From a virus, in IMG/VR virus record IMGVR_UViG_3300021356_000797, positions 1 to 64,000 of that record: a stretch of 64,000 nt of DNA. The stretch is one strand, 5' to 3'. Below, in pieces: positions 3,473 to 52,592 of this stretch. The notes beneath the pieces were generated by a model. It worked only from the letters and a program-made list of their open reading frames with translations, made no database searches and was not told the origin of the DNA. The number at the start of each line of letters is the position of its first letter. Position 1 is the stretch's first letter. The position numbers and the translations under genes were made by a program.

Positions 3473-4005
3473 TGCTGGTAAAATTATTTGATATTCAGAA
3501 CGGAACTGTAATTCCTAGTGAACACAGTTATACATTGAACTTCCTAAAGGTGATTAGAGAAGAGTATCCTGAAGAACATTTAGACATTTATGCCTACTTA
3601 TTCTACATGACTTGCCCTAATCCGGATATGAATCCGTTCTTCAATATTCCGGATAGAGATAAAGAAGACCTTATACTCAGGGAGTTACGTACTGGTGAAG
3701 ACTTCTCTGACTTTGATACAGATGAAGAGATGATTCAAGAAGCTTTAAAGAATTGTACTCTACTATATGAGACTCCTACTTATAGAGCTTATAAAGGTAT
3801 TGCTAGTATGTTGGACCGTTTGGCAGACTATATGATGAGAACACCAATAGAACATGGTAGAGATGGTAACATTAATCAGATAGTTAATGCAGCTGCTAAA
3901 TTTGAACAGATAAGAAATTCATTTAAAGGAGCTTATTCAGATCTACAGGAAGAGCAGAAGTCTTCTGTTAGAGGAGGTCAAAACTTATCTTATGATCAAA
4001 TGTAA
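3472..4005 (+). CDS. Conserved protein upstream of TerL, candidate small terminase subunit (177 aa)
   Basis: A helical, acidic protein whose N-terminus reads MLVKLFDIQNGTVIPSEHSY. The C-terminal half (LADYMMRTPIEHGRDGNINQ, then a helix VNAAAKFEQIRNSFKG) and its place directly before TerL, coupled by TAATG on both sides, make it a candidate for the small terminase subunit or an equivalent packaging adaptor. I see no helix-turn-helix that would prove DNA recognition. It strongly resembles a gene kept in this position in crAss-like genomes. The role is inferred from position. Confidence 0.55.
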   Translation: MLVKLFDIQNGTVIPSEHSYTLNFLKVIREEYPEEHLDIYAYLFYMTCPNPDMNPFFNIPDRDKEDLILRELRTGEDFSDFDTDEEMIQEALKNCTLLYETPTYRAYKGIASMLDRLADYMMRTPIEHGRDGNINQIVNAAAKFEQIRNSFKGAYSDLQEEQKSSVRGGQNLSYDQM

Positions 4006-6209
4006 TGAGTGATATCAGTATCTCATGTTATAACTGTAAGGAGCAAGCTTGGACAGAGGCGAAGTTCAAAGAAAAAAATGAACTTGTCAAGTTTATTCAA
4101 AAACTTTTTAAAGAACCTGGTGAGTATAACTTCACTGAGGAGACTGAAATTTTTACTGCTGAAGCCACTAAATTCAATAGATATGGGGTTTATTGTACAG
4201 CTCCTTACATGTCAAAAGAATTTATTGAGTACTGGGATGATCAGAAACAAAAATGCCGCAATGGGGTAATTATCCAAGGAGAAAAAGACACCTGGTATCT
4301 TACACGTGACTACTACATGTGGTTAAACTTTCTTCCCATCTATGATAAAGAAGAAAAGAAGTATGGCTTTGCTAAGGTTAGAGATGCCCAGTATCATATG
4401 GCATTGTATGAATGGCTAGCTGAAGCTGAATACAAACACGTAGCCATTCTGAAAAAACGTCAGATTGCATCATCATACTTTCATGCAGCCAAGCTTCTAA
4501 ATACCTATTGGTTTGAAGAAGGTGCTGTACTAAAGATGGGTGCATCACTTAAATCCTATGTTAATGATGAGGGTACATGGAAATTCCTGGACGAGTACAA
4601 GAACTTTCTTAATGAACACACCGCCTGGTACAGACCAGCAAATCCTGATAAGACTCTTTTATGGGAGCAAAAGATTGAGGTTACTATCAATGGGCGTAAG
4701 CAAAATAAAGGGCTTATGTCTAAGATACAGGGGATGTCTTTTGAAAAGAATGCCACCAAAGGGGTAGGGGGTCCTGTTACTTATTTCTTCCATGAGGAAG
4801 CAGGTATTGCTCCTAAGATGGACCAAACTTATGAATACTTAAGACCTGCCATGGCGTCAGGTCAGATTACTACAGGTATGTTTATTGCAGCAGGATCTGT
4901 AGGGGATTTGGAACAATGTGAACCATTAAAGGACATGATCCTGAATCCTAAAGCCAACGATATCTATGCAGTAGAAACCAACCTGCTAGATGATAAGGGG
5001 AGTAGAGGAGAAGTGGGACTCTTCATTCCTGAACAGTGGTCTATGCCACCTCTTATAGATAATTGGGGGAACTCAATGGTAGAGGAAGCATTAGCAGCTA
5101 TTCAGGAAGAGAGGGCTACATGGAAAAGAGAATTAAGCCCTGAGCAGTATCAGCTGAGAATATCTCAGAAACCAACAAACATTGCTGAGGCTTTTGCTTA
5201 TCGTAAAGAGTCACTCTTCCCTCAAAACCTTATCTCTTCTCAAACTAAAAGAATTGAGGATAAAGAATATCCTGTAGAATATCTAGAACTAGATTGGGAT
5301 GAAGCTGGTACTGGTATTAAAGCTAGCCGTAGTAGAAAGCAACCAATTAATACTTTTCCTGTAGATAAGCGTCAAGAAGATAAGACAGGGGTGCTTTGTG
5401 TTTATGAGCGTCCTGTAGATAATCCTGAGTTTGGTATGTACTATGCAAGTATTGACCCCGTAGGAGAAGGTAAAACAACAACGTCTGAGTCACTTTGTAG
5501 CATCTATGTATACAAGAACCCTATTGAGGTAACAAAGATCACTGACGAAGGTCCTCAGAGCTTTGTAGAGGGTGATAAGATTGTAGCTGCCTGGTGTGGT
5601 AGATATGATGATATCAATAAGACTCATGAGCAGCTAGAAAAGATTATAGAATATTACAGAGCTTGGGCTCTTGTGGAAAATAACGTGTCACTATTTATCC
5701 AGTATATGATTGCTAAACGCAAACAGAAGTGGCTGGTTCCCAAGGATCAAGTGCTATTCCTGAAAGATATAGGGAGTAATAGAAGTGTATATGCAGAGTA
5801 TGGGTGGAAGAACACTGGTACTATGTTTAAGAATCACTTGATAAACTATGCTATTGAGTTCCTTAAGGAGGAGATAGATATAGAAACTGATGCTGACGGT
5901 ACCATCACTAAACGTATATTTGGTATTGAACGCATTCCTGATATTATGCTTATGAAAGAAATGCAAGCATACCAGCCAGGTGTAAACGTGGATAGACTGG
6001 TATCATTTGCAGCTCTTATAGGATTTGCCAAAGTACAACAAGCAAATAGAGGATATCAGAAACGAATTGATAATGAGTCATCTGTAAAATTGGATAATAC
6101 GCAGAAAATGACTAAATTAAATATGAGTCCCTTTAGACATATTGGAGGGGGCAACAAAGGTATTATGGGAGGTAAAGGAAAGCGTTCAGCTTTTAAAAAT
6201 TTAAAGTAA
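4005..6209 (+). CDS. terL: Terminase large subunit (734 aa)
   Basis: This is the motor and nuclease that packages DNA into the prohead. The ATPase half shows a degenerate Walker A around K150-S157 (KKRQIASS) and a Walker B with catalytic acids at E264-E265 (YFFHEEAG). The RNase-H-like nuclease half has D484 (SIDPVGEG), E558 (LVENN) and D663 (VDRLVSF), the expected acidic triad. A length of 734 aa is within the large TerL class of crAss-like phages. It is coupled to the previous gene by TAATG and followed after one base by the portal gene, the usual packaging order. Confidence 0.93.
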   Translation: MSDISISCYNCKEQAWTEAKFKEKNELVKFIQKLFKEPGEYNFTEETEIFTAEATKFNRYGVYCTAPYMSKEFIEYWDDQKQKCRNGVIIQGEKDTWYLTRDYYMWLNFLPIYDKEEKKYGFAKVRDAQYHMALYEWLAEAEYKHVAILKKRQIASSYFHAAKLLNTYWFEEGAVLKMGASLKSYVNDEGTWKFLDEYKNFLNEHTAWYRPANPDKTLLWEQKIEVTINGRKQNKGLMSKIQGMSFEKNATKGVGGPVTYFFHEEAGIAPKMDQTYEYLRPAMASGQITTGMFIAAGSVGDLEQCEPLKDMILNPKANDIYAVETNLLDDKGSRGEVGLFIPEQWSMPPLIDNWGNSMVEEALAAIQEERATWKRELSPEQYQLRISQKPTNIAEAFAYRKESLFPQNLISSQTKRIEDKEYPVEYLELDWDEAGTGIKASRSRKQPINTFPVDKRQEDKTGVLCVYERPVDNPEFGMYYASIDPVGEGKTTTSESLCSIYVYKNPIEVTKITDEGPQSFVEGDKIVAAWCGRYDDINKTHEQLEKIIEYYRAWALVENNVSLFIQYMIAKRKQKWLVPKDQVLFLKDIGSNRSVYAEYGWKNTGTMFKNHLINYAIEFLKEEIDIETDADGTITKRIFGIERIPDIMLMKEMQAYQPGVNVDRLVSFAALIGFAKVQQANRGYQKRIDNESSVKLDNTQKMTKLNMSPFRHIGGGNKGIMGGKGKRSAFKNLK

Positions 6210-13999: not shown

Positions 14000-14011
14000 T
14001 TTTGTATATTA
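14000..14011 (+). promoter_or_regulatory. Phage promoter box TTTTGTATATTA (site 3)
   Basis: An exact box followed by TAGTGTAAG, 59 bases before the start codon at 14071, the longest leader in the set. A 10-bp hairpin begins three bases after the box. Confidence 0.78.
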
Positions 14012-14013
14012 TA

Positions 14014-14036
14014 GTGTAAGGCACGTTGCTTTACAC
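14014..14036 (+). other. 10-bp hairpin at the expected 5' end of an mRNA
   Basis: GTGTAAGGCA (14014-14023) pairs with TGCTTTACAC (14027-14036), one G-U pair, loop CGT. It starts three bases after promoter site 3, so it would sit at or near the very 5' end of the message. A T7 run follows at 14043-14049. It may be a stabilising 5' hairpin or an attenuator. Confidence 0.6.
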
Positions 14037-15291: not shown

Positions 15292-15828
15292 ATGGCCTCA
15301 AAACATGAATTAAGTTTAGAGATTCCGGAAACGGCAAATGCTAAACTATTTAGAGTTATTGATACAAGTTCTTACAGCAAGGACCTGGCAGTAGAGTGCC
15401 CAACTTTGCAGATCTTGTCTCCTGGTTTCAATGAGACTAGAGATGTTGAGGCTATAGCTGGCTTCAACTATGTTCTTAATGCTTGTACATTAGGTGTACA
15501 AACGTCAGGCTGTGATACAACTTCTGCAGATTTAGGTGATGGTATCTATGTGATCCGTTATAGTGTTTCTCCTAATGAGTATGTATACGTAGAATACAAT
15601 CATTTGAGAATGACACAGGCACTTAACATGTACTATGAGAAGCTAGGAGAGATTGATTTAGGTGGTTATGATCCTACAGATACTCAACTAGAGTTGCTAG
15701 GTGAAATGAGACTAATTAAATCAATGTTTGACGCAGCTAAAGCAAAAGTAGAATACTGTCATGAACCTAAAGAGGGATATGAACTATTTGTTTATGCCCT
15801 TAAAAGACTAAAGAATCTTTGTGTTTAA
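15292..15828 (+). CDS. Conserved structural-module protein (178 aa)
   Basis: The N-terminal half is beta-like and contains the segment ETANAKLFRVIDTSSYSKD, with spaced cysteines (C36, C64, C72 by reading). The C-terminal half is helical (LLGEMRLIKSMFDAAKAKVE) and ends with another Cys. I recall similar proteins in flavophage and crAss-like structural modules, but no function is established. It is first in a unit that continues through a zinc-finger micro-protein and two fibre-associated genes, so a tail-assembly or connector role is plausible. Confidence in the gene is high; the function is open. Confidence 0.6.
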   Translation: MASKHELSLEIPETANAKLFRVIDTSSYSKDLAVECPTLQILSPGFNETRDVEAIAGFNYVLNACTLGVQTSGCDTTSADLGDGIYVIRYSVSPNEYVYVEYNHLRMTQALNMYYEKLGEIDLGGYDPTDTQLELLGEMRLIKSMFDAAKAKVEYCHEPKEGYELFVYALKRLKNLCV

Positions 15829-15847: not shown

Positions 15848-15976
15848 ATGGCTATTTGCCCTAACTGTAAATCAAAACTAAGCTGCAGTTGTCAGAAGAG
15901 AACTGCATCAGATGGAAAACAAGTATGCTCTAACTGTATGTCATCATATCAGCAGCGCATTCTTAAGAATAAATAA
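15848..15976 (+). CDS. Micro-protein with two Cys knuckles (42 aa)
   Basis: ATG at 15848 gives 42 residues beginning MAICPNCKSKLSCSCQKRTA and ending QRILKNK. Six cysteines (4, 7, 13, 15, 27, 30) form CxxC - CxC - CxxC, a compact zinc-ribbon pattern, with the conserved-looking SCQKRTASDGKQVCSNC core. It lies neatly between two structural genes; the next ATG is one base after its stop. I recall such micro-zinc-ribbons next to fibre genes in Bacteroidota phages; their role is unknown. The Cys spacing makes a chance ORF very unlikely. Confidence 0.75.
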   Translation: MAICPNCKSKLSCSCQKRTASDGKQVCSNCMSSYQQRILKNK

Positions 15977-15977
15977 A

Positions 15978-16604
15978 ATGGCAAGCAGAAGCAAAGTAAT
16001 AAGTTTTACCGATAGTTCTGTTAAACTACAAAAGAACTACTCAGATGCGGTATACAAAGTGTTCCTAGAAGAACGCTATGGTATTGCACCTTGTGGTAAA
16101 GGTAAATCTATGGAGCAGCTAGAAGCAGAGAAAATGCTCTGTGACTGGAAAGTTTTAAAAGGTGCTGAAGATCTATCAGATACTCAGTTGAGATACTTTG
16201 CTAATCTTCCAATTTATATTGACCAGAAAGCTGGTACAGTTACTAATGACTCACACTATAGATTTGCTGGATCAGCATCTAATAGAAATGCAACAGTGAC
16301 TTACAATACCGGTTTTAACGGAGAGCAGAATATTGTAGAAATTAATGCTGGTGGTGCAGTAACAAGAATTAACCTTAACTCAATTATTAATATTGATAAC
16401 ACTGAGTTAGATAAATACACTCACTACCAAGAAACTCCTTCTACTGTATGGACTATTGTTCATAATATGGAGTTTGTACCAGGTAACGAATTAATTACAG
16501 ACCTGGATGGAAATGAAATAGAAGGTGTAACTAGAGTAATAGATCTTAATACTATTGAGATCACCTTTAGTGAAGCTATAGCAGGATATGCATACGTGAG
16601 TTAA
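15978..16604 (+). CDS. Fibre-associated protein with C-terminal beta module (208 aa)
   Basis: The start is ATG 15978, one base after the micro-protein stop; the frame is open further upstream, but only through that gene. The N-terminus is helical and lysine-rich (SVKLQKNYSDAVYKVFLEER), with a C-terminal domain of about 60 residues from PSTVWTIVHNMEFVPGNELI to ITFSEAIAGYAYVS. That closing module (W-x-I-x-H-N ... D-G-x-E-x-E-G ... I-T-F-S) is widespread at the ends of phage fibre and baseplate proteins, and the next gene carries it too. Probably a virion protein attached to the tail fibres. Confidence 0.65.
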   Translation: MASRSKVISFTDSSVKLQKNYSDAVYKVFLEERYGIAPCGKGKSMEQLEAEKMLCDWKVLKGAEDLSDTQLRYFANLPIYIDQKAGTVTNDSHYRFAGSASNRNATVTYNTGFNGEQNIVEINAGGAVTRINLNSIINIDNTELDKYTHYQETPSTVWTIVHNMEFVPGNELITDLDGNEIEGVTRVIDLNTIEITFSEAIAGYAYVS

Positions 16605-16605
16605 G

Positions 16606-17130
16606 ATGGCACAGAATAAAAAGATATTTTATAGTAACATAAGTCTTGCTAAGAATGAGCTCTTAGATGCTAGGATTCAAAACAAGACTACTGCTCAGAG
16701 ACAGGCAATGTCTTTAGGTGCTACGCATTCTGGTTTAGCTGTATGGGATTTAGACCTTGCAGCTTTATTTGTATGGCAGTATGACCATTGGGTACGTGCT
16801 GAGGCAGACCCTGGTGATGTTCTTAGATGGAATGCAGCTTATGATGATTCTGTAGTAGGTATTAACATTACTCAGGGTACTGATACTACATTTACTATTG
16901 AAAGAAGAAACAGTGAGAATCTTACTGCAGTATATAGAAGTGGTTATGAGCATAATCAAAACACACCTTCTAACACTTGGGTAATTAATCACAACTTAAA
17001 TAAAAGACCTTCAGTAACAGTTATTGATTCTGCAGGCACTGAGGTAGAGGGAGCAGTTACTGTAGACTCTCTTAATCAGATAACTATTGTTTTTTGTTCA
17101 GCCTTTTCCGGAAAGGCATTATTAAATTAA
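16606..17130 (+). CDS. Fibre-associated protein with shared C-terminal beta module (174 aa)
   Basis: The first 100 residues (FYSNISLAKNELLDARIQNK, then SGLAVWDLDLAALFVWQYDHW) resemble the N-terminal attachment region of the 634-aa fibre that follows. The last 55 residues repeat the module of the preceding gene (NTWVINHNLNKRPSVTVIDS through ITIVFCSAFSGKALLN). It is likely a short fibre or a capping protein. The gene begins two bases after the previous stop and ends 25 bases before the next start, so the three are one unit. Exact role unknown. Confidence 0.6.
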   Translation: MAQNKKIFYSNISLAKNELLDARIQNKTTAQRQAMSLGATHSGLAVWDLDLAALFVWQYDHWVRAEADPGDVLRWNAAYDDSVVGINITQGTDTTFTIERRNSENLTAVYRSGYEHNQNTPSNTWVINHNLNKRPSVTVIDSAGTEVEGAVTVDSLNQITIVFCSAFSGKALLN

Positions 17131-33541: not shown

Positions 33542-33564
33542 GCTTACACTCAAACAAAATCTGA

Positions 33565-33594
33565 AGCCATCCTTTGATTAGGGTGGCTTTTTTT
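33565..33594 (+). terminator. Rho-independent terminator fused to promoter site 7
   Basis: AGCCATCC (33565-33572) pairs with GGGTGGCT (33581-33588, one G-U pair) and is followed by an unbroken T-run to 33594. The last four T residues are also the first bases of promoter site 7. Transcription of one unit ends where the next begins. Confidence 0.85.
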
Positions 33595-33602
33595 GTATAT
33601 TA
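33591..33602 (+). promoter_or_regulatory. Phage promoter box TTTTGTATATTA (site 7)
   Basis: An exact box, followed by TAATATAAAG, embedded in the U-run of the preceding terminator and 36 bases before the ATG at 33639. It starts the FN3-like gene array. Confidence 0.78.
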
Positions 33603-33638
33603 TAATATAAAGAGTTTTTAAATATAACTAGATAAATT

Positions 33639-34223
33639 ATGGCAACTTCAACAACTACCACCAGTATTGTTCTTAACTGGACTCCTGCAGGTGGCTCTAA
33701 TTCAACAGGCCAAGAGGTGCAAAGAAGTCCTGCAGGTGCAGGTACATATACTACACTTGCTACTTTAGGTCCAACAATTAATACATATACAGATACTACA
33801 GCGGTAGTAGATACCGTATATGACTATCAAATTGTAAACATTTGTGCAGTAGGTGGTCCTACTAGTAGTGGTACAAGTGATATTGTAGATATTAGTTGTG
33901 TTTCTTTAACAGCAAATGTACAAGGTCTTATTGTAGATGGTGAATACGGTGAATTATTTAACGATACTAGCTGGCTATCATTTGATATTTTGGATGAGAC
34001 TGGTGCTTCTGTTATTCAAGCATTAACTGTTCCTACTGGTCAAGGTGCTGGTCTTTACACTAGTACTGATGCTGGTATGAGTTATGATACTAATTATATC
34101 TTAAGAGCTACTCTTACTGCTCCTAATGGTACTATTGAAAAATGTGATGTCCCATTCTCTACCGGTGCTCAACCAGATTGTGAGGCTCCAACTAACTTAA
34201 CAGTTTCTGTAGTACAAGCTTAG
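33639..34223 (+). CDS. FN3-like adhesin protein 1 (194 aa)
   Basis: The first of a family of neighbouring genes whose N-termini share one FN3-like domain. Here it is SIVLNWTPAGGSNSTGQEVQ and then VYDYQIVNICAVGGPTSSGT, the strand pattern of fibronectin type III (W in strand B, Y-x-Y in strand F). The C-terminal 100 residues form a second beta domain. Two Cys pairs could make disulfides. No signal peptide is seen, so export would be as a virion component, which fits the fibre-side location. Probably a decoration or adhesion protein. Confidence 0.6.
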   Translation: MATSTTTTSIVLNWTPAGGSNSTGQEVQRSPAGAGTYTTLATLGPTINTYTDTTAVVDTVYDYQIVNICAVGGPTSSGTSDIVDISCVSLTANVQGLIVDGEYGELFNDTSWLSFDILDETGASVIQALTVPTGQGAGLYTSTDAGMSYDTNYILRATLTAPNGTIEKCDVPFSTGAQPDCEAPTNLTVSVVQA

Positions 34224-34239
34224 TTTTAAAATAGTAATT

Positions 34240-34270
34240 TAGATAGGGTGGATAATTTTCACCCTATCTA
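34240..34270 (+). terminator. Hairpin between FN3-like genes 1 and 2
   Basis: TAGATAGGGTG (34240-34250) pairs perfectly with CACCCTATCTA (34260-34270), loop GATAATTTT; flanking ATAGTA and TACTAT allow partial extension. No clear U-tract follows. It could be a terminator, an mRNA end stabiliser, or a processing site that sets relative expression of the array members. Confidence 0.6.
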
Positions 34271-34308
34271 ATACTATTAGAGGAGTGTAGTATTAATATT
34301 ATTTAGAT

Positions 34309-34860
34309 ATGGCTTTAAAACTTACTTGGATCCCTGCAGGTGGGCAAAACAGTACCGGTCAAGAAATATATAGATCTGGAGATTACGTTGATTCAGTAGG
34401 TCCTACTGAGAGTACGTATCTTGATAATCCACCTATTCCAAATACTACATATGAATACACAATAGTAAATCTTTGTAGTAGTGGAGGACCTACTTCTTCA
34501 GACCCTGTAGTAGGTGTTAATTGGGAGTGTCCTTCAATTACCGTTACAGAAGTAAGCGGTGACTTGCGAGTGAATGTAGGAGAAATCCAATCTGGTTATA
34601 TAATTTCTGTAGATCTTTATAATAGTGATGGTACTACACTTATACAGTCAGGAGATTCTTTTCAACCAACAAGAAATAGTGTTATTTCTTTATTTACAAA
34701 TTTAACTGCTGGTAATACATATACTGTTGTAGTTTCCGTAGCAGCTCAAGGTTTAGATGAAAGTCCAGACCTTAACTATATTAATGACTGTACAGAGCAA
34801 GCCACTTTAAGTGCTTCATGTACTCAAGCAACTAATGTATCAGCAAACCCACAATACTAA
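34309..34860 (+). CDS. FN3-like adhesin protein 2 (183 aa)
   Basis: Paralogue of the previous gene, beginning MALKLTWIPAGGQNSTGQEI and continuing with the shared TYEYTIVNLCSSGGPTSSDP strand pair. The second half is a different beta domain (VEVSGDLRVNVGEIQSGY-like) and ends with Cys-containing text TLSASCTQATNVSANPQY. Its stop overlaps the next start as TAATG. The conserved opening and divergent ending suggest a common attachment domain with variable tips. Confidence 0.6.
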   Translation: MALKLTWIPAGGQNSTGQEIYRSGDYVDSVGPTESTYLDNPPIPNTTYEYTIVNLCSSGGPTSSDPVVGVNWECPSITVTEVSGDLRVNVGEIQSGYIISVDLYNSDGTTLIQSGDSFQPTRNSVISLFTNLTAGNTYTVVVSVAAQGLDESPDLNYINDCTEQATLSASCTQATNVSANPQY

Positions 34861-35552
34861 TGGCAACAATCGTAGTTACATGGACACCTGGTGGAGGACC
34901 TACAGCAGTTAGTCAAAAAGTGAAAAGGTCTGTTAGTGGAGCTAATAACTTTATTGAGCTTGTTGAAATAACTGATCCTACTGTTTCTACTTATACAGAT
35001 ACTCAGGCTGATGATAATACATTGTATGATTATCAGGTTGTAACTGTTTGTAGTGTTGGTCCGGACACAATTAATAGCGGAGGATTTCCTCCAACCATTT
35101 ATATTGATTGTGGTACAGCAACTTTAAATTCATATTCAGCTTCAGGTGGTGGAAACACGTTTCCTGAAATTTCTTTTACTATTCCAAGTAGAACGGGTAC
35201 AGACGTAAAAATTCAGTCTTATCAGTGGAAAGATGCTTCAGGCACTGCTATAGATTATCAATATACTGTTAATACTCAAAATGCTGTTACAGGAACAATT
35301 AGTAGTGATTCAAATGGTAATTTATTATCTTGGAGTACTCAGTATACATTGCACGTAACATTTAAGTCTACAGATGACGCTTTTACTAGAGAGTGTACAT
35401 TTGACATAACTACGGCGGCACAACCGGCTAGTTGTACAGCGGCAACAAACTTTACTGTAACAAATGAATATAGAACCGACTTTAACTATCCTGTAGATTC
35501 ATCTTCATCAGATCCTAGTGAAGGTTCAGGTGAAGGAAGTTTACCAGCTTAA
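34860..35552 (+). CDS. FN3-like adhesin protein 3 (230 aa)
   Basis: Begins MATIVVTWTPGGGPTAVSQK with the same FN3-like strands (TLYDYQVVTVCSVGPDTINS), then a second domain with QWKDASGTAIDYQYTVNTQN. The last 30 residues are a Ser/Asp/Pro/Glu-rich linker ending GEGSLPA, likely unstructured. Coupled by TAATG to the preceding gene and followed after 12 bases by the next, so the array is one operon. An extra domain is missing compared with the following 391-aa member. Confidence 0.6.
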   Translation: MATIVVTWTPGGGPTAVSQKVKRSVSGANNFIELVEITDPTVSTYTDTQADDNTLYDYQVVTVCSVGPDTINSGGFPPTIYIDCGTATLNSYSASGGGNTFPEISFTIPSRTGTDVKIQSYQWKDASGTAIDYQYTVNTQNAVTGTISSDSNGNLLSWSTQYTLHVTFKSTDDAFTRECTFDITTAAQPASCTAATNFTVTNEYRTDFNYPVDSSSSDPSEGSGEGSLPA

Positions 35553-35564
35553 AAGTAAAAAAGA

Positions 35565-36740
35565 ATGTCAGAAAATTCTAGATTTAAAATAACTTGGACA
35601 CCCAGTTCTGCAGCTGTTTCTCAAAAGCTTTATAGATCTTTGAGTAATACGGGTCCTTGGACTTTAATAGCAACCTTAGGGCCTACTGTAGATAGTTATA
35701 CAGATAGTTCTGTAGATCCTACACCTGCGGATGTTTACTATTATAAGCTTGATACTATTTGTTCTAATGGTAATTCAGAAACTGCTGTAGTATTTGATAC
35801 AGCTATTAATTGTGATTCTAATGGTAAAACTAGATTATTTGGTTTGGTTAATAATGCTACAGAAACAAATAATATTTTAGATTTTACTTATTATGATACT
35901 GCAAATTTATTTGCAAATACTTATTATTCTGCAAGTACTTCCTATCCTAAAACTATTACAGTAGATAAAACAGACCCTATTGTAGTAGTTTGTCAAAAAT
36001 GTGGACAAGATGTAACTTATTCTTTAAATGCTACTTCTGCTAGTTTTGGAGCTACTCAAACTTTAGGTGATTATAGCTATTTAAGTACGCAGGGGCATAT
36101 TATAAAATATTTACCAACTTCTCCAACTGGTTTAGGTGGAAGTAGTAATAATAATGCAGGGACCGTTCGTCAAAAACTTTACGAGGGTACTTTAGCTCCT
36201 GTGGGTGGTAGATTCCAATTAGGAGTAGGTAATACTGGTTCTAATACCTGGGTTGGTTGGGGATTTGGTTATGTGTCGGCAAATGCTAATACAAGTGTAG
36301 CCACAACTAATTTGACTTGGAATTATGGTGAAATGCCTTCTTCTACAAGTACTGCTAATGGTGGTTTTACTGGAATTAGAATTAGCAAAGCTGACTGGGA
36401 TGGTAATTCTCCAGGAACTGAAGATTTTTCGTCAGCTTTAGCACAACTGACTGGATCTAACTGGTATGTGAGTATTTTAGATTCTTCTAATCTTGTTTAT
36501 GTTGATAACACTGCTTATGGAGGATTAAGCTGTGAACATCATATATACAAACTTACAAGAAAATCAGCTTGGGATTATGTTGTAAATGGTGTAATAACTC
36601 ATTATGGATTTATTATGCAAAGGTATAGCTATGTAGATTATAATGGTTATAGAATTTATAGTAGTCCTATTAGACAGCATTATTTTCCTTATACTGCAGG
36701 TCAACAGCCTGATGCATATTTAAAAATATTTAGTCTTTAA
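35565..36740 (+). CDS. FN3-like adhesin with large unique C-terminus (391 aa)
   Basis: The N-terminal FN3-like unit (RFKITWTPSSAAVSQKLYRS, then VYYYKLDTICSNGNSETAVV) is followed by about 300 residues of a distinct domain rich in Tyr, Asn, Ser and Trp (NTWVGWGFGYVSANANTSVA; SAWDYVVNGVITHYGFIMQR), with two pairs of Cys. Such aromatic, polar, beta-rich text fits a receptor- or glycan-binding head. It ends before promoter site 8. This member is the best candidate for the specificity-determining adhesin of the array. Confidence 0.58.
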   Translation: MSENSRFKITWTPSSAAVSQKLYRSLSNTGPWTLIATLGPTVDSYTDSSVDPTPADVYYYKLDTICSNGNSETAVVFDTAINCDSNGKTRLFGLVNNATETNNILDFTYYDTANLFANTYYSASTSYPKTITVDKTDPIVVVCQKCGQDVTYSLNATSASFGATQTLGDYSYLSTQGHIIKYLPTSPTGLGGSSNNNAGTVRQKLYEGTLAPVGGRFQLGVGNTGSNTWVGWGFGYVSANANTSVATTNLTWNYGEMPSSTSTANGGFTGIRISKADWDGNSPGTEDFSSALAQLTGSNWYVSILDSSNLVYVDNTAYGGLSCEHHIYKLTRKSAWDYVVNGVITHYGFIMQRYSYVDYNGYRIYSSPIRQHYFPYTAGQQPDAYLKIFSL

Positions 36741-36767
36741 CATTAAGGCTTTTAATTAAGGGTGAAA

Positions 36768-36779
36768 TTTTGTATATTA
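36768..36779 (+). promoter_or_regulatory. Phage promoter box TTTTGTATATTA (site 8)
   Basis: An exact box followed by TAATGTAGG, 51 bases before the ATG at 36831. The leader then holds GGGT-GCAA-ACCC (36787-36798), a short stem with a GNRA-type loop close to the expected transcript start. Confidence 0.75.
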
Positions 36780-36830
36780 TAATGTAGGGTGCAAACCCAA
36801 CTTGGCTAAGTATTTACAAAATTTTAGTAT

Positions 36831-38051
36831 ATGATTCCTATATCATCAAGCAACTATCAACAAGGTTGTGACCCTATATCATCTAATTGTGTAATTTGGC
36901 AAGGACCAGATCTACCAATTATTGGTCTTTGTAAGGGAGACAGTATTAGTGATGTAATTAAAAAACTTGCAGACTCCTTAGTAGAAATTAGTGATTCAGT
37001 TTCTACTGCAGGTGTAGACTTGAGTTGTTTACAACTATCAAATCCACCTGAAACAACTGCTGATCTTTTTCAAATAATTGTAGATGAACTTTGTAGCCTA
37101 GATAGTAGATGTGATAATTTAGAAAGTGGAGGCGGTTCTACAGGAACTGCAGAAATTACAGCTACTTTACCTTTATGTCTACAATATACTAATGCTCAAA
37201 ATGATTTAGTTACCCAACTTCCTATTGATGAGTATGCTGAGCTTGTTGCAGCAAAGGTGTGTGATATTATTGCAGACATTACAATAATTAATACTCAGAT
37301 TTCAGATCATGAGACTCGCATTACTAACCTGGAAAATAATACAGGAAGTGGTGACTATACAACTCCTCAAATTACTCCCAACTGTGTTCTTCCTTCAGTA
37401 CCTACAGATATTGATGTAGTTCTAGATGAATTAGAAGATCAGTTTTGTACACTTGATACTGTACTAGGAGGTTCAACATCTTTGCTAGCTTCTACTAGTT
37501 ATCAGTGTGATTTGTTGTCTACTGATAACCAATTAGGTGGTAGCGGTACAATGAGTTCATTAGAAGGTTGGGTTACCCCAGTTAGTAGTGTAGCAGATTC
37601 ATTAACTAATATGTGGTTGACTATCTGTGATATGCGTGCAGCTATTAAAGATATTCAGACTAACTGTTGTACAGGAGCTACATGTAATGATGTAATTTTT
37701 AGTGCATTTGGTTCATACGCAAATGATACTATCACACTAAACTTTGGAGGATCAGTTATTCCTGCAGGATTTAGTGAATGTAATCCTGCAGGCAATAGCG
37801 TTACTATTACAGATGCTGCATCTAATACTTATAGCACTACTGTATCAGTAAGTGGCGCACTTGTTGGTGATGGTACAGAAACTATTGATATATCTGGATC
37901 ACAATTAAGTGACATTTCTAATTATTTTGTTACAATTACACTTTGTGTTACAGATGGTGATATTACTTGTGAAAAATTACTTTCATTTGAAGTTGTAAAT
38001 GACGCATCTTCTTGTGGAGTTCCAACAGGTATTTCAGTAACATTATCATAA
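36831..38051 (+). CDS. Adhesin-like protein with coiled-coil core (406 aa)
   Basis: Begins MIPISSSNYQQGCDPISSNC; the phrase ISSNCVIWQGPDLPIIGLCK followed by GDSISDVIKKLAD is one I recall from fibre genes of Bacteroidota phages and probably anchors the protein. Residues about 30-300 are acidic helical segments with periodic Cys and Leu (ISDHETRITNLENNTG), compatible with a trimeric shaft. The last 120 residues are a beta domain with FN3-like strands and end GVPTGISVTLS, the start motif of the next array domain. Probably a short fibre. Confidence 0.58.
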   Translation: MIPISSSNYQQGCDPISSNCVIWQGPDLPIIGLCKGDSISDVIKKLADSLVEISDSVSTAGVDLSCLQLSNPPETTADLFQIIVDELCSLDSRCDNLESGGGSTGTAEITATLPLCLQYTNAQNDLVTQLPIDEYAELVAAKVCDIIADITIINTQISDHETRITNLENNTGSGDYTTPQITPNCVLPSVPTDIDVVLDELEDQFCTLDTVLGGSTSLLASTSYQCDLLSTDNQLGGSGTMSSLEGWVTPVSSVADSLTNMWLTICDMRAAIKDIQTNCCTGATCNDVIFSAFGSYANDTITLNFGGSVIPAGFSECNPAGNSVTITDAASNTYSTTVSVSGALVGDGTETIDISGSQLSDISNYFVTITLCVTDGDITCEKLLSFEVVNDASSCGVPTGISVTLS

Positions 38052-38054
38052 AAC

Positions 38055-39191
38055 ATGGCAACATTAACAATTAATTTTAATACTACAGCCAATGCTGTTA
38101 AGTACAGGATTAAAGTAAGACAATCTGGTACCAGCACTTATGCAATCCATGAGGTTACTAGTAGTCCACTAGTTTTAGATAATATTCCTTGTGGTATTGC
38201 TTATGAGGGTACTGTTCAGGCAATTTGCTCTGAAGGTATTCCGTGTGATAGATATAACGTCTTTACTCATGGTCCAGCAGATGGTGATGTGTATTATGAT
38301 AATTGTGCTACTGGAGAGTCTGAATCTCAGGCTCTTACGGGTTGGGATAATTTTCATGTTTGTAGTAGAACAACGCCTGTTGTACAAGGGTCTTCTGGAA
38401 CTACAGTAACTAAAGTATCTCAAGGAGAATGTACCTCTCCTTCACCAGAAGAAATTAGTGGACCAGTTTACTGGTCAGCTACAGCAGCTACTTGTCCTGC
38501 TGACTCTTATGTATTTACAAACTGTGCTGATGGTACAACTGAGAAGTATATAAGTAAAGTTATTTGGACTAGTAGCAACGTTTATGGCTCAGCTCCTGCA
38601 AGCAATTTAGTATATGAAATTGATTTTGATGGTAATGGCTATAGCTGTTGGACATATAGTCGTGAAGACGATAGTACACAACATCCTTCAGGAAATACTA
38701 TTCCTTTAGATGTAAATCAATCTGTCTTTAATGATTGTCAACAGTGTGCTGGCATTTATGCTCACAAGTTTGAAAATTGTAGTAGCGGAGTTATTACTTG
38801 GATTTTACCTAGTGCTTGGAGTACAGTTTCAGGTGGTACAGCTCCTGTATTAAATACTGTATATAGAGGAAGGTTTAATCAGATAGTAGGTTGTTATAAA
38901 TATTTAGGATCTGAAAATACTAACTCAGCTGTTGGTACAGTGTCTTCTAACTTTACTTTACAGACTTATTCTAATTGTCAGACTTGTCCAGATACCTTCT
39001 ATTCTCTAAGATCTTGTGATGGTACTACAACTCAAACTGGATTTTACTATGGTGTACAGTTAAGCCCAGGGCAATCAGTAAGATTGCTAGGTCTTCCTAC
39101 ACAATGCTGGGAAGTTATGGGAACTTCTACTTCTAACAGTGGATTAGAAATTACTCAAGTGTTTAATGATTGTGATTCTTGTGCAGTTTAA
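38055..39191 (+). CDS. Cys-repeat adhesin (378 aa)
   Basis: The first 75 residues form an FN3-like domain (LTINFNTTANAVKYRIKVRQ; GIAYEGTVQAICSEG). Three successive Cys-rich units of about 75 residues follow, each containing an NCxxGxxxxY-type start and closing with NDCQQC, SNCQTC or NDCDSC at their ends. The regular Cys spacing (C, C, C-x2-C) predicts disulfide-stabilised small domains outside the cell. It follows the previous gene after three bases. Likely a stalk or binding module exposed on the particle. Confidence 0.6.
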   Translation: MATLTINFNTTANAVKYRIKVRQSGTSTYAIHEVTSSPLVLDNIPCGIAYEGTVQAICSEGIPCDRYNVFTHGPADGDVYYDNCATGESESQALTGWDNFHVCSRTTPVVQGSSGTTVTKVSQGECTSPSPEEISGPVYWSATAATCPADSYVFTNCADGTTEKYISKVIWTSSNVYGSAPASNLVYEIDFDGNGYSCWTYSREDDSTQHPSGNTIPLDVNQSVFNDCQQCAGIYAHKFENCSSGVITWILPSAWSTVSGGTAPVLNTVYRGRFNQIVGCYKYLGSENTNSAVGTVSSNFTLQTYSNCQTCPDTFYSLRSCDGTTTQTGFYYGVQLSPGQSVRLLGLPTQCWEVMGTSTSNSGLEITQVFNDCDSCAV

Positions 39192-39206
39192 AAAAAATAA
39201 ATAATT

Positions 39207-39725
39207 ATGGCTTGTAATACGTGTGGGGGAAATGGTTGTACATGTGGTCCAGTTAGGATTAACCCCGTATATCCAGAATGCCCAGGTGGAGAACCATGTG
39301 ATTCAACAATGGACTTTGCCTGTGTAAGATATAGAGGAGATGATCTAGCAGACTTTCCTTTAGCAAATGGTGATAGACTATCTAGATTTATGCAGATGCT
39401 AGTTCTTAGAGAACTAGATCCTACTGCATTTGCAGGTGTAGATTTTATTCGTGCACCTTACTGGATTGAGTCTATTGCTAAAACAGATACTACTATTGAT
39501 ATTGAGTGGGATGATACTCCTACTACTTTTGATTGGATTATTTCTTATTCTCTTGATAACAGTACTTGGACTGATATTACTGGTGTAGCAAACACTAAAA
39601 ATTCTTATCAGTTAATAAACCTAGCACCTGCTACCAAGTACTATATTAAAGTTGCTGCAGTAGGTAATGGCGGGGCTCCTGGTCCTTTCTACTCTCTTAC
39701 TATTGAGGTAACTACTAACGCATAA
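39207..39725 (+). CDS. FN3-domain protein with Cys-rich N-terminus (172 aa)
   Basis: The N-terminus MACNTCGGNGCTCGPVRINP is cysteine-rich, then CPGGEPCDSTMDFACVRYRG. The C-terminal 95 residues are the clearest FN3 domain in the window: IDIEWDDTPTTFDWIISYSL, NSYQLINLAPATKYYIKVAA and a final TIEVTTN strand, which match strands B-C, E-F (L-x-P-x-T-x-Y) and G. It is the last gene of the array and is followed by a double-hairpin terminator. It may act as a small virion decoration or capping protein. Confidence 0.68.
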   Translation: MACNTCGGNGCTCGPVRINPVYPECPGGEPCDSTMDFACVRYRGDDLADFPLANGDRLSRFMQMLVLRELDPTAFAGVDFIRAPYWIESIAKTDTTIDIEWDDTPTTFDWIISYSLDNSTWTDITGVANTKNSYQLINLAPATKYYIKVAAVGNGGAPGPFYSLTIEVTTNA

Positions 39726-39762: not shown

Positions 39763-39794
39763 AACCCTTCCATTTTGGAGGGGTTTCTTTTTTG
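39763..39794 (+). terminator. Rho-independent terminator after the adhesin array
   Basis: AACCCTTCCA (39763-39772) pairs with TGGAGGGGTT (39776-39785), one G-U pair, loop TTT, followed by TCTTTTTT. This closes the operon of FN3-like and Cys-repeat genes. Confidence 0.88.
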
Positions 39795-39836: not shown

Positions 39837-41036
39837 ATGAGTTCATTACTGGACCGTGTAAGACAATCCCTCAAATGGAAAAAAACAGCTCAGCTTTGTG
39901 CTGACAGAATTGGCATTAGTGTAGAAGACTATCTTGCCTTGAAATCCATAGTATCAGATGATGCTATCACTGACACAGGTGTACGCACTGGTGTTATGTC
40001 TGAGAATGTAAATCTTGAAGAAGGTTCTTCTAAGATTGAAGCTATTTCAAGTACAGAACCTAAGACTCCCGAAGATATTATTGAGATCCTAGGAATTGAT
40101 ACTAATGAATGGAAACTATCACAGTATTGGAATAAACAAAAGTCTGATCACTGGGTAGTATCTGCACTAGTTACAAAGCTGAAGCCTACAGAAGTAGATA
40201 ACTTAGCTGAAGCGGTGAAGAACTATAGACCTACAAGCTATTCAGTAGTACATTGTCCCCGTATAGATATTAATAAAAATGATAGCTACTGCGGGGTTTT
40301 TAGTGTTCAAGATGTACACTTTGGTAAGGAGAATAACAATGACGTCATAGATAGATTTAGAGAAGCTATTACAGAAGTTGCATACAAGGCTTCTAAGGCT
40401 TACAATATGGACAAGCTATACTATGTGGTAGGTGGTGATTTGTTAAACGCTGATACATTCTCTAAGACTACTACTAAGGGTACTCCCGTAGAGAATGATA
40501 AGGATCCTATTCAAGCTTATATTGAAGCCTTTGATGCAGTAGTATGGTCTATTCATCAGCTTAAAGAAGTATGTACAGAACTAGTTGTTGTATATATTCC
40601 AGGTAACCATGATAGATTATCTTCTTGGCATCTGGCTCATGCACTAGAAAAGTCTGTTACTATTGAAGGTGTAACCTTTGATACAGAATACTCAGAGCGT
40701 AAGGTGCATTTATTTGGAGATAACTTTTTAGCATTTGAACATGGTGATGTTAATACTTCTAACTCTGACAGAGTATATGCTGCAGAGTTCTCAGAAGAGT
40801 GGGGAGCTACTACTTATAGAACCTTATACACTGGTCACTATCATCAGAAGAAGACTAGTGTATTTATTACTGAAAATGAAATCAATGGTTTCTCTGTAAA
40901 GATTATGCCTAGTCTTTCTAACTCAGACTATTGGCATTATCACAACAAATTTGTAGGTAGTAAGAAGGCTGCAGTACTAGAAGTACATGAGCATATTAAT
41001 GGGAAGGTTGCTGAGTTTTGTCATATAGCACGATAA
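39837..41036 (+). CDS. Calcineurin-like metallophosphoesterase (399 aa)
   Basis: All metal-binding motifs of the calcineurin-like phosphoesterase fold are present: D159-x-H161 (QDVHFGK), G-G-D201, GN257-H258-D259 (IPGNHDR), H302-G-D304 and G333-H-x-H336 (TGHYHQK). It should hydrolyse phosphomonoesters, phosphodiesters or nucleic acid. The first 150 residues are extra, with an HTH-like start (AQLCADRIGISVEDYLALKS) that could recognise DNA. It sits between adhesin and neck genes, an odd place for an enzyme, though I recall metallophosphoesterases in crAss-like structural blocks. Confidence 0.85.
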   Translation: MSSLLDRVRQSLKWKKTAQLCADRIGISVEDYLALKSIVSDDAITDTGVRTGVMSENVNLEEGSSKIEAISSTEPKTPEDIIEILGIDTNEWKLSQYWNKQKSDHWVVSALVTKLKPTEVDNLAEAVKNYRPTSYSVVHCPRIDINKNDSYCGVFSVQDVHFGKENNNDVIDRFREAITEVAYKASKAYNMDKLYYVVGGDLLNADTFSKTTTKGTPVENDKDPIQAYIEAFDAVVWSIHQLKEVCTELVVVYIPGNHDRLSSWHLAHALEKSVTIEGVTFDTEYSERKVHLFGDNFLAFEHGDVNTSNSDRVYAAEFSEEWGATTYRTLYTGHYHQKKTSVFITENEINGFSVKIMPSLSNSDYWHYHNKFVGSKKAAVLEVHEHINGKVAEFCHIAR

Positions 41037-52557: not shown

Positions 52558-52569
52558 TTTTGTATATTA
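52558..52569 (+). promoter_or_regulatory. Phage promoter box TTTTGTATATTA (site 10)
   Basis: An exact box, preceded by TAATT and followed by TAAATGAGA, 23 bases before the ATG at 52593. It would drive the two following GG-linker proteins. Confidence 0.75.
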
Positions 52570-52592
52570 TAAATGAGATATCGTAACTAGTT

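What the first reader, a model, noticed from the sequence alone, without database searches (positions are those of the whole stretch)
33639..39725. A tandem family of FN3-like adhesin genes
Seven neighbouring genes have FN3-like or Cys-rich beta domains. Four share an opening of W-T-P, S/T-x-Q-x-x-x-R-S and a closing D-Y-Q-I/V-V-x-x-C pair, with different C-termini. This looks like repeated duplication of an attachment domain with tip exchange, which would widen host range. A hairpin and promoter boxes divide the array into units.
Basis: partly seen in the sequence, partly recalled or inferred. Interest (0 to 1): 0.6.

Follow-up and report, generated by a model that had tools for sequence, protein, structure and literature searches.

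The report
Phage fibre with split FN3 domains
A row of virus genes that looks like copied adhesins turns out to cut fibronectin-type domains in two at the gene boundaries, so each protein probably hands a strand to the next like links of a bacterial pilus, a way of building a fibre that I did not find described for tailed phages.

Summary
The array is real: seven genes (33639-39725) in the structural cassette of a crAss-like phage carry FN3-like, Cys-bearing domains. Four (g1-g4) are lineage-specific duplicates, and promoter boxes and hairpins divide the array. Each of g1, g2, g3 and g5 ends right after a strand that aligns with FN3 strand A. The gene next downstream (g2, g3, g4, g6) starts directly at strand B. 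The FN3 domain is therefore split across gene boundaries. In relatives that pass Pfam's cut-off, acceptor domains start at protein residue 3-4 against fn3 profile position 15-16, so exactly strand A is missing. Other relatives (L010, L012, L019 and others) have both halves in one polypeptide. Across 125 related genomes, all 53 with a free A-strand on g5 also have a separate acceptor gene; 60 of 72 without it have none. Reading frames vary and a gene often lies between the halves, so read-through cannot join them. Best explanation: donor-strand complementation in trans, with g5 as anchor, g1-g3 as links and g4/g6 as caps, topologically like type V pili (C-terminal donor, missing N-terminal strand). 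Strand insertion and virion location are inferred, not shown. 'Attachment' is plausible; 'tip exchange' is unproven.

The parts
33639..34223 (+). g1, 194 aa: link subunit (N-terminal FN3 acceptor, full FN3, C-terminal donor strand)
34179..34220 (+). g1 donor strand A: CEAPTNLTVSVVQA
   Evidence: modelled as a strand (residues 185-193)
34309..34860 (+). g2, 183 aa: link subunit; starts at FN3 strand B (MALKLTWIPAGG)
34819..34857 (+). g2 donor strand A: CTQATNVSANPQY
34860..35552 (+). g3, 230 aa: link subunit; starts at strand B (MATIVVTWTPGGG); overlaps the g2 stop (TAATG)
35433..35549 (+). g3 donor strand A and tail: CTAATNFTVTNEYRTDFNYPV...; the DFNYP tail recurs in the equivalent gene of L027/L028, also just before the g4-like gene
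35565..36740 (+). g4, 391 aa: cap; FN3 acceptor plus about 300 aa of its own; no donor strand
36831..38051 (+). g5, 406 aa: anchor; conserved N-terminal module (SSNCVIWQGPD...GDSISDV), ends in a donor strand; 19 Cys
38013..38048 (+). g5 donor strand A: CGVPTGISVTLS
   Evidence: A2/A4 alignments; A-B hairpin in the read-through model
38055..39191 (+). g6, 378 aa: cap; starts at strand B (MATLTINFNTT); no donor strand; Cys-rich
39207..39725 (+). g7, 172 aa: N-terminal module homologous to that of g5, plus a complete FN3
   Evidence: Pfam fn3 29.4 bits; hhalign with g5 module 95.9%, E 6e-9
33563..33590 (+). terminator-like hairpin before g1
33591..33609 (+). promoter-like box TTTTGTATATTATAATATA upstream of g1
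34224..34308 (+). strong hairpin without T-tail between g1 and g2
   Evidence: z -5.15
36768..36786 (+). promoter-like box TTTTGTATATTATAATGTA upstream of g5
   Evidence: box with up to 3 mismatches upstream of 68/142 g5 relatives against 235/2530 other ORFs
39765..39782 (+). terminator-like hairpin after g7

Best explanation
The genes encode a modular FN3 fibre or appendage of a crAss-like phage whose subunits are joined by donor-strand complementation. g5 is the virion-side anchor and ends in a free FN3 strand A. g1, g2 and g3 are links: an N-terminal FN3 that lacks strand A, a complete FN3, then a C-terminal strand A. g4 and g6 are caps that accept a strand but give none. The C-terminal strand of one protein fills the missing-strand site of the next, in gene order g1-g2-g3-g4 and g5-g6 (g5 to g1 possible), giving a non-covalent chain, perhaps latched by a disulphide between the Cys that opens each donor strand and the invariant strand-F Cys of the acceptor. 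Shown by sequence: FN3 homology, missing strand A, donor-like ends, order, fused relatives, co-occurrence. Inferred: insertion in trans, disulphide latch, presence on the virion, surface binding. I put about 0.9 on the split domain and 0.6 on the full mechanism.
For: (1) Acceptors lack exactly strand A: where relatives pass the curated Pfam fn3 cut-off, residue 3-4 aligns to profile position 15-16 (L044, L054, L073, L076, L078, L084, L091, L096), while the complete FN3 of g7-type proteins starts at position 2-3. (2) Donor ends align with strand A: in alignment A2 the split g5 proteins stop where L010, L012, L019, L023, L088 and others run on into strand B; the A2 profile matches solved FN3 domains from residue 5 on, starting at that strand (Tenascin-R E 0.0027, monobodies 0.1-1). 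(3) A model of the g5 C-terminus plus g6 N-terminus (read through the stop) gives strands 115-122 and 127-133 and matches tandem fibronectin FN3 (pLDDT 84; 3t1w TM 0.54, 5.7 A). (4) Adjacency: 32 of 80 acceptor genes against 40 of 971 other genes follow a gene with a donor end (p 8e-20); in the window 4 of 4 donors directly precede an acceptor. (5) Co-occurrence in 125 genomes: g5 donor implies acceptor 53/53; no donor, no acceptor 60/72; in two exceptions the donor is on the g7-like gene just before the acceptor. (6) g5 length is quantised: about 405-418 aa ending after one strand A, about 487-526 aa often ending after the next strand A, or more than 550 aa continuous. (7) In L010, where the g5 strand is already used by a fused FN3, the separate g1-g4 and g6 genes are absent.
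Against: Orphan acceptors exist: ten genomes have an acceptor gene without a donor recognised on g5 or elsewhere, and many g6-type acceptors follow a gene with no donor end. The association is clustered on the tree: about 10 changes, 5 supported independent pairs, 3.6 concordant and 0 discordant on average, not significant alone. Motif rules and profiles were set after seeing data, so p-values are descriptive. For the window's own pairs, adding the donor does not clearly raise FN3 scores (ranks 27-111 of 200) nor Pfam hits; the signal is strong in relatives (16 of 36 pairs rank 2/200 or better). No complex could be modelled and no coordinates were visible. No virion data.
Confidence: 0.6

Rival explanations
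1. Ordinary gene fission and duplication of a tandem-FN3 adhesin: the break between strands A and B is a tolerated leftover, the A-less FN3 folds alone, and the free C-terminal strand does nothing.
For: Strand A is peripheral in FN3; orphan acceptors without a donor exist; continuous and split versions both occur.
Against: Donor ends persist when the acceptor gene is not adjacent and never occur without an acceptor (53/53). The break returns to the same place after the number of FN3 domains changes by one. A useless strand should decay, yet VTATL-type ends stay conserved among g5 proteins only about 35-65% identical to the window's.
Confidence: 0.27
2. Self-complementation: each protein's C-terminal strand folds back into its own N-terminal FN3, as in a circular permutant; no chain forms.
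For: In the g1 monomer model the C-terminal strand (185-193) is in a sheet at pLDDT about 75-88, and its domain layout fits a linear tandem poorly (TM 0.37).
Against: The anchor g5 has a donor but no N-terminal acceptor, and caps g4 and g6 have acceptors but no donor. One-domain links (L028 gene of 103 aa, L070 gene of 93 aa) have a donor only a few residues after strand G, too short to reach back (geometry from FN3 knowledge).
Confidence: 0.08
3. The halves are joined during translation by stop read-through or frameshift, so the domain is intact in a fusion protein.
For: g5/g6 and g3/g4 are in one frame with short gaps.
Against: Frames vary in relatives (0:10, 1:17, 2:5); two stops lie between g3 and g4; in many genomes the whole g7-like gene lies between donor and acceptor.
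Confidence: 0.03

Closest known systems
Type V pili of Bacteroidetes (FimA of Porphyromonas gingivalis)
   Same: An N-terminal strand is missing from the acceptor, and the C-terminal strand of the neighbouring subunit is the proposed donor (PMC5954841, citing Xu et al. 2016); anchor, stalk and tip subunits.
   Different: There the strand is removed by a protease, here it is absent from the gene; fimbrillin fold against FN3; secreted bacterial surface proteins against phage proteins; exchange is experimentally supported for FimA, inferred here.
Chaperone-usher pili (type 1, P)
   Same: Incomplete Ig-like fold completed by a strand of the next subunit (PMC5954841).
   Different: Donor is N-terminal there, C-terminal here; no usher or chaperone genes recognised here.
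FN3-bearing tail and fibre proteins of Caudoviricetes (lambda J-like, minor tail proteins, 'Fibronectin type III' proteins)
   Same: Tandem FN3 domains in phage structural proteins; Foldseek hits of g1.
   Different: In the ones known to me the domains are complete within one polypeptide.
crAss001 tail hub THA/THB (gp38/gp39), head fibres gp21/gp29 and tail fibre gp22
   Same: Similar place in the cassette just before ring proteins; interlocking Cys-linked hub as attachment point of fibres (PMC10172136).
   Different: No sequence match of g7 to gp39 or g5 to gp38; PDB profile matches of g5 and g7 that could be interpreted were FN3 proteins.

Membership tests
Fibronectin type III domain (Pfam PF00041) | Match above the curated cut-off | tested here: met
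   Window g7 29.4 bits; g1 and g2 only 14.9 and 13.4, but related acceptor proteins 28-45 bits
Fibronectin type III domain (Pfam PF00041) | All seven strands A-G in one chain | tested here: not met
   Acceptor domains start at profile position 15-16, residue 3-4 of the protein
Donor-strand complementation system | Acceptor domain lacks one strand | tested here: met
Donor-strand complementation system | A partner carries the matching free terminal strand | tested here: met
   weak for the window's own pairs taken singly
Donor-strand complementation system | Strand inserted in trans in the assembled chain | not testable with these tools
   No complex prediction; needs structure or binding assay
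Type V pilus fimbrillins | Match to a fimbrillin family | tested here: not met
   No fimbrillin family in Pfam scan of g1-g7; Fimbrillin_C at E 0.09 in one relative is below the curated cut-off
Crassvirales tail hub proteins THA/THB | Sequence relation to crAss001 gp38/gp39 | tested here: not met
   hhalign probabilities 0.1-0.2%
crAss-like phages (Crassvirales and kin) | TerL, portal, MCP and multiple ring proteins in the conserved order | tested here: inconclusive
   phrog_6681, 6547, 11589, 9863, 34036 found in order; ring protein closest to Cellulophaga phi17:2/phi4:1, Flavobacterium Fpv and csAssE-Sib; no formal phylogeny made

The most novel reading that the evidence does not exclude
Tailed phages of this crAss-like group build an appendage as a heteropolymer by donor-strand complementation of genetically split FN3 domains, with anchor, link and cap subunits, so links and caps can be gained or lost as separate genes.
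Probability: 0.5. Interest if true: 0.82.

Novelty: new variant of a known kind. Interest (0 to 1): 0.66.

Why it matters
If true, phages assemble fibres by the principle thought typical of bacterial pili, with the strand missing in the gene itself, and gene order predicts assembly order. It gives a simple, testable grammar (anchor, link, cap) for a large uncultured phage group: 560 candidate loci in one search and none in the cultured phage collection. It would also explain how fibre parts vary between such phages as whole genes.

Tried and rejected
Single-protein scan of viral contigs with g1: no relatives; anchoring on the neighbouring exonuclease and ring genes worked. DNA similarity to known phages: none. 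g5/g7 as crAss001 tail hub THA/THB: no support; the conserved protein at 15292 as THA: no support. Read-through or frameshift joining: rejected. Pfam fn3 score gain on read-through pairs of the window and L028: none, a negative result. Scoring donor plus acceptor with a profile of complete FN3 domains: strong for most CP-type donors of relatives, uninformative for the window's pairs. An earlier loose donor pattern counted strand G ends as donors; replaced by a two-Cys rule. Host from genome contigs: four MAG contigs from unrelated groups, probably mis-binned phage, so no host claim. Rfam: no RNA family in the region. Literature search for donor-strand exchange in tailed phages: nothing relevant in this library, which is not proof of absence.

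Full report
WHAT WAS CLAIMED AND WHAT IS THERE. The window is bases 1-64000 of a 103,840-base IMG/VR virus record. Around the finding lies a crAss-like structural cassette: TerL (4005-6209), portal, major capsid protein, several fibre genes, then the seven genes of the finding, an exonuclease-like gene, ring proteins and a 1595-aa protein in the place of the muzzle. The seven ORFs are real and adjacent. g1-g4 are paralogues by sequence. Of the seven, only g7 passes Pfam's fn3 cut-off, but g1-like proteins of relatives pass it with 32-45 bits, and g1 models as two FN3 domains with fibronectin as best structural match. The hairpins and promoter boxes are also real, and the box is a family feature: it lies upstream of 68 of 142 g5 relatives with up to 3 mismatches, against 235 of 2530 other ORFs.

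Reading the ends of the proteins together shows a pattern. g1 ends CEAPTNLTVSVVQA, g2 CTQATNVSANPQY, g3 CTAATNFTVTNEY plus a tail, g5 CGVPTGISVTLS: each resembles the first strand (A) of an FN3 domain, opened by a Cys. The next genes start without that strand, directly at strand B: g2 MALKLTWIPAGG, g3 MATIVVTWTPGGG, g4 MSENSRFKITWTPSS, g6 MATLTINFNTT. In the window all four donors directly precede an acceptor.

TESTS OF THE SPLIT. (a) Pfam coordinates: in relatives above the cut-off the fn3 match starts at residue 3-4 of the protein and profile position 15-16, whereas the complete FN3 of g7-type proteins starts at position 2-3. (b) Natural fusions: in alignment A2 split g5 proteins stop at one column, and L010, L012, L017, L019, L023, L065, L088, L095 and L096 run on from that column into strand B and the rest of an FN3. 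The profile matches solved FN3 domains beginning at this strand (single E-values are modest). (c) A model of the g5 C-terminal domain read through into g6 gives strand A (115-122) and strand B (127-133) of a second FN3 behind a first one, and matches tandem fibronectin domains. The read-through is only a device for modelling.

TESTS OF FUNCTION BY COMPARISON. Relatives came from viral-contig scans. Gene pairs: 32 of 80 acceptor genes follow a gene with a donor end against 40 of 971 other genes. Many of those 40 are g1- or g5-like donors followed by a g7-like gene, with the acceptor further down. Genomes: with a two-Cys donor rule and separate acceptor profiles, 53 of 53 genomes with a donor on g5 have an acceptor gene between g5 and the conserved gene upstream of the ring proteins; 60 of 72 without it have none. 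Two of the 12 exceptions carry the donor on the g7-like gene instead, directly before the acceptor; the other ten are orphan acceptors as far as I can see. g5 length is quantised: about 405-418 aa, ending after strand A; about 487-526 aa, one FN3 longer and often ending after the next strand A; or more than 550 aa, continuous. These counts are not independent: the g5 tree needs about 10 changes of donor state, with 5 well-supported independent pairs, concordant in 3.6 and discordant in none on average. That agrees with the model but is not significant alone. Rules and profiles were tuned on the data, so p-values are descriptive.

WHY NOT READ-THROUGH OR SELF-CLOSURE. Donor stop and acceptor start stand in all three frames, g3 and g4 are separated by two stop codons, and a whole gene lies between donor and acceptor in many genomes. 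Self-closure cannot serve g5 (donor only) or g4 and g6 (acceptor only), and one-domain links (103 aa in L028, 93 aa in L070) have the donor only a few residues after their last strand.

MECHANISM PROPOSED. g5 would be the anchor: its N-terminal module is shared with g7 (hhalign 95.9%) and is the most conserved part of the family. Its C-terminal strand accepts g6, or the chain g1-g2-g3-g4. Close relatives differ in link number and length: 194/183/230/391 aa here, 189/103/335 in L028, at least two genes in L011. L010, where the g5 strand is used by a fused FN3, lacks g1-g4 and g6. Cys positions fit a latch: each of g1-g3 has four Cys, two for its complete FN3 and two left over, one at the start of the donor strand and one at the end of strand F of the acceptor domain, the latter invariant in the 27 aligned proteins. 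This disulphide is inference. A virion position near the tail is inference from gene order; no homology to the crAss001 hub proteins was found.

ORIGIN OF THE ARRAY. The N-terminal domains of g1-g4 and of their counterparts in L011, L027 and L028 form one clade (100/97), separate from single-copy g1-like genes of other relatives; the g6 type is a second clade (100/100).

COMPARISON WITH KNOWN SYSTEMS. By topology the nearest is the type V pilus, where the N-terminal strand of FimA is removed and a C-terminal strand of the neighbour takes its place (PMC5954841). Here the strand is absent from the gene and the fold is FN3; no fimbrillin family matches. It works like donor-strand complementation on this evidence, but it is not a member of the pilus families.

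VERDICT. Split FN3 domains at gene boundaries: about 0.9. Complementation in trans building a phage appendage: about 0.6. Host-range widening by tip exchange: unsupported.

Noticed in passing
window 14000-14018, 33591-33609, 36768-36786, 52558-52576: Recurrent promoter-like box TTTTGTATATTATAATRTA, probably the structural-gene promoter of this phage group; also conserved upstream of g5 in many relatives.
   Followed up: partly
window 36831-37010 and 39288-39413: g5 and g7 share an N-terminal module of about 41 aa (C-V-x-[WY]-x-G-[PD]...G-D-x-[LIV]-S); possible common docking module (hhalign 95.9%).
   Followed up: partly
window 39837-41036: An SbcD-like exonuclease gene (phrog_704) sits inside the structural cassette; kept in many relatives but absent in others such as L119, L125 and L129.
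   Followed up: no
window 34224-34308: Very stable hairpin (z -5.15) without a T-tail between g1 and g2; could be a processing site or partial terminator that sets link stoichiometry.
   Followed up: no
L213, L215, L225, L226, L229, L232: Genomes with acceptor genes but no donor strand on g5 and an enlarged g7-like gene (403-418 aa): orphan acceptors that the model does not explain.
   Followed up: partly
L078:3687-6275: An 862-aa acceptor-type protein carries Ig_3-like domains behind its FN3 pair, an example of a long alternative cap.
   Followed up: no
L007:6077-8142 (phage csAssE-Sib): The record annotates variable and template repeats and a reverse transcriptase next to a tail fibre gene upstream of the ring protein, i.e. 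a diversity-generating retroelement in the equivalent fibre region of a relative.
   Followed up: no
window 15912-17130: Two neighbouring fibre-like ORFs have similar-looking C-termini (LNTIEITFSEAIAGYAYVS and LNQITIVFCSAFSGKALLN), perhaps a duplicated pair.
   Followed up: no
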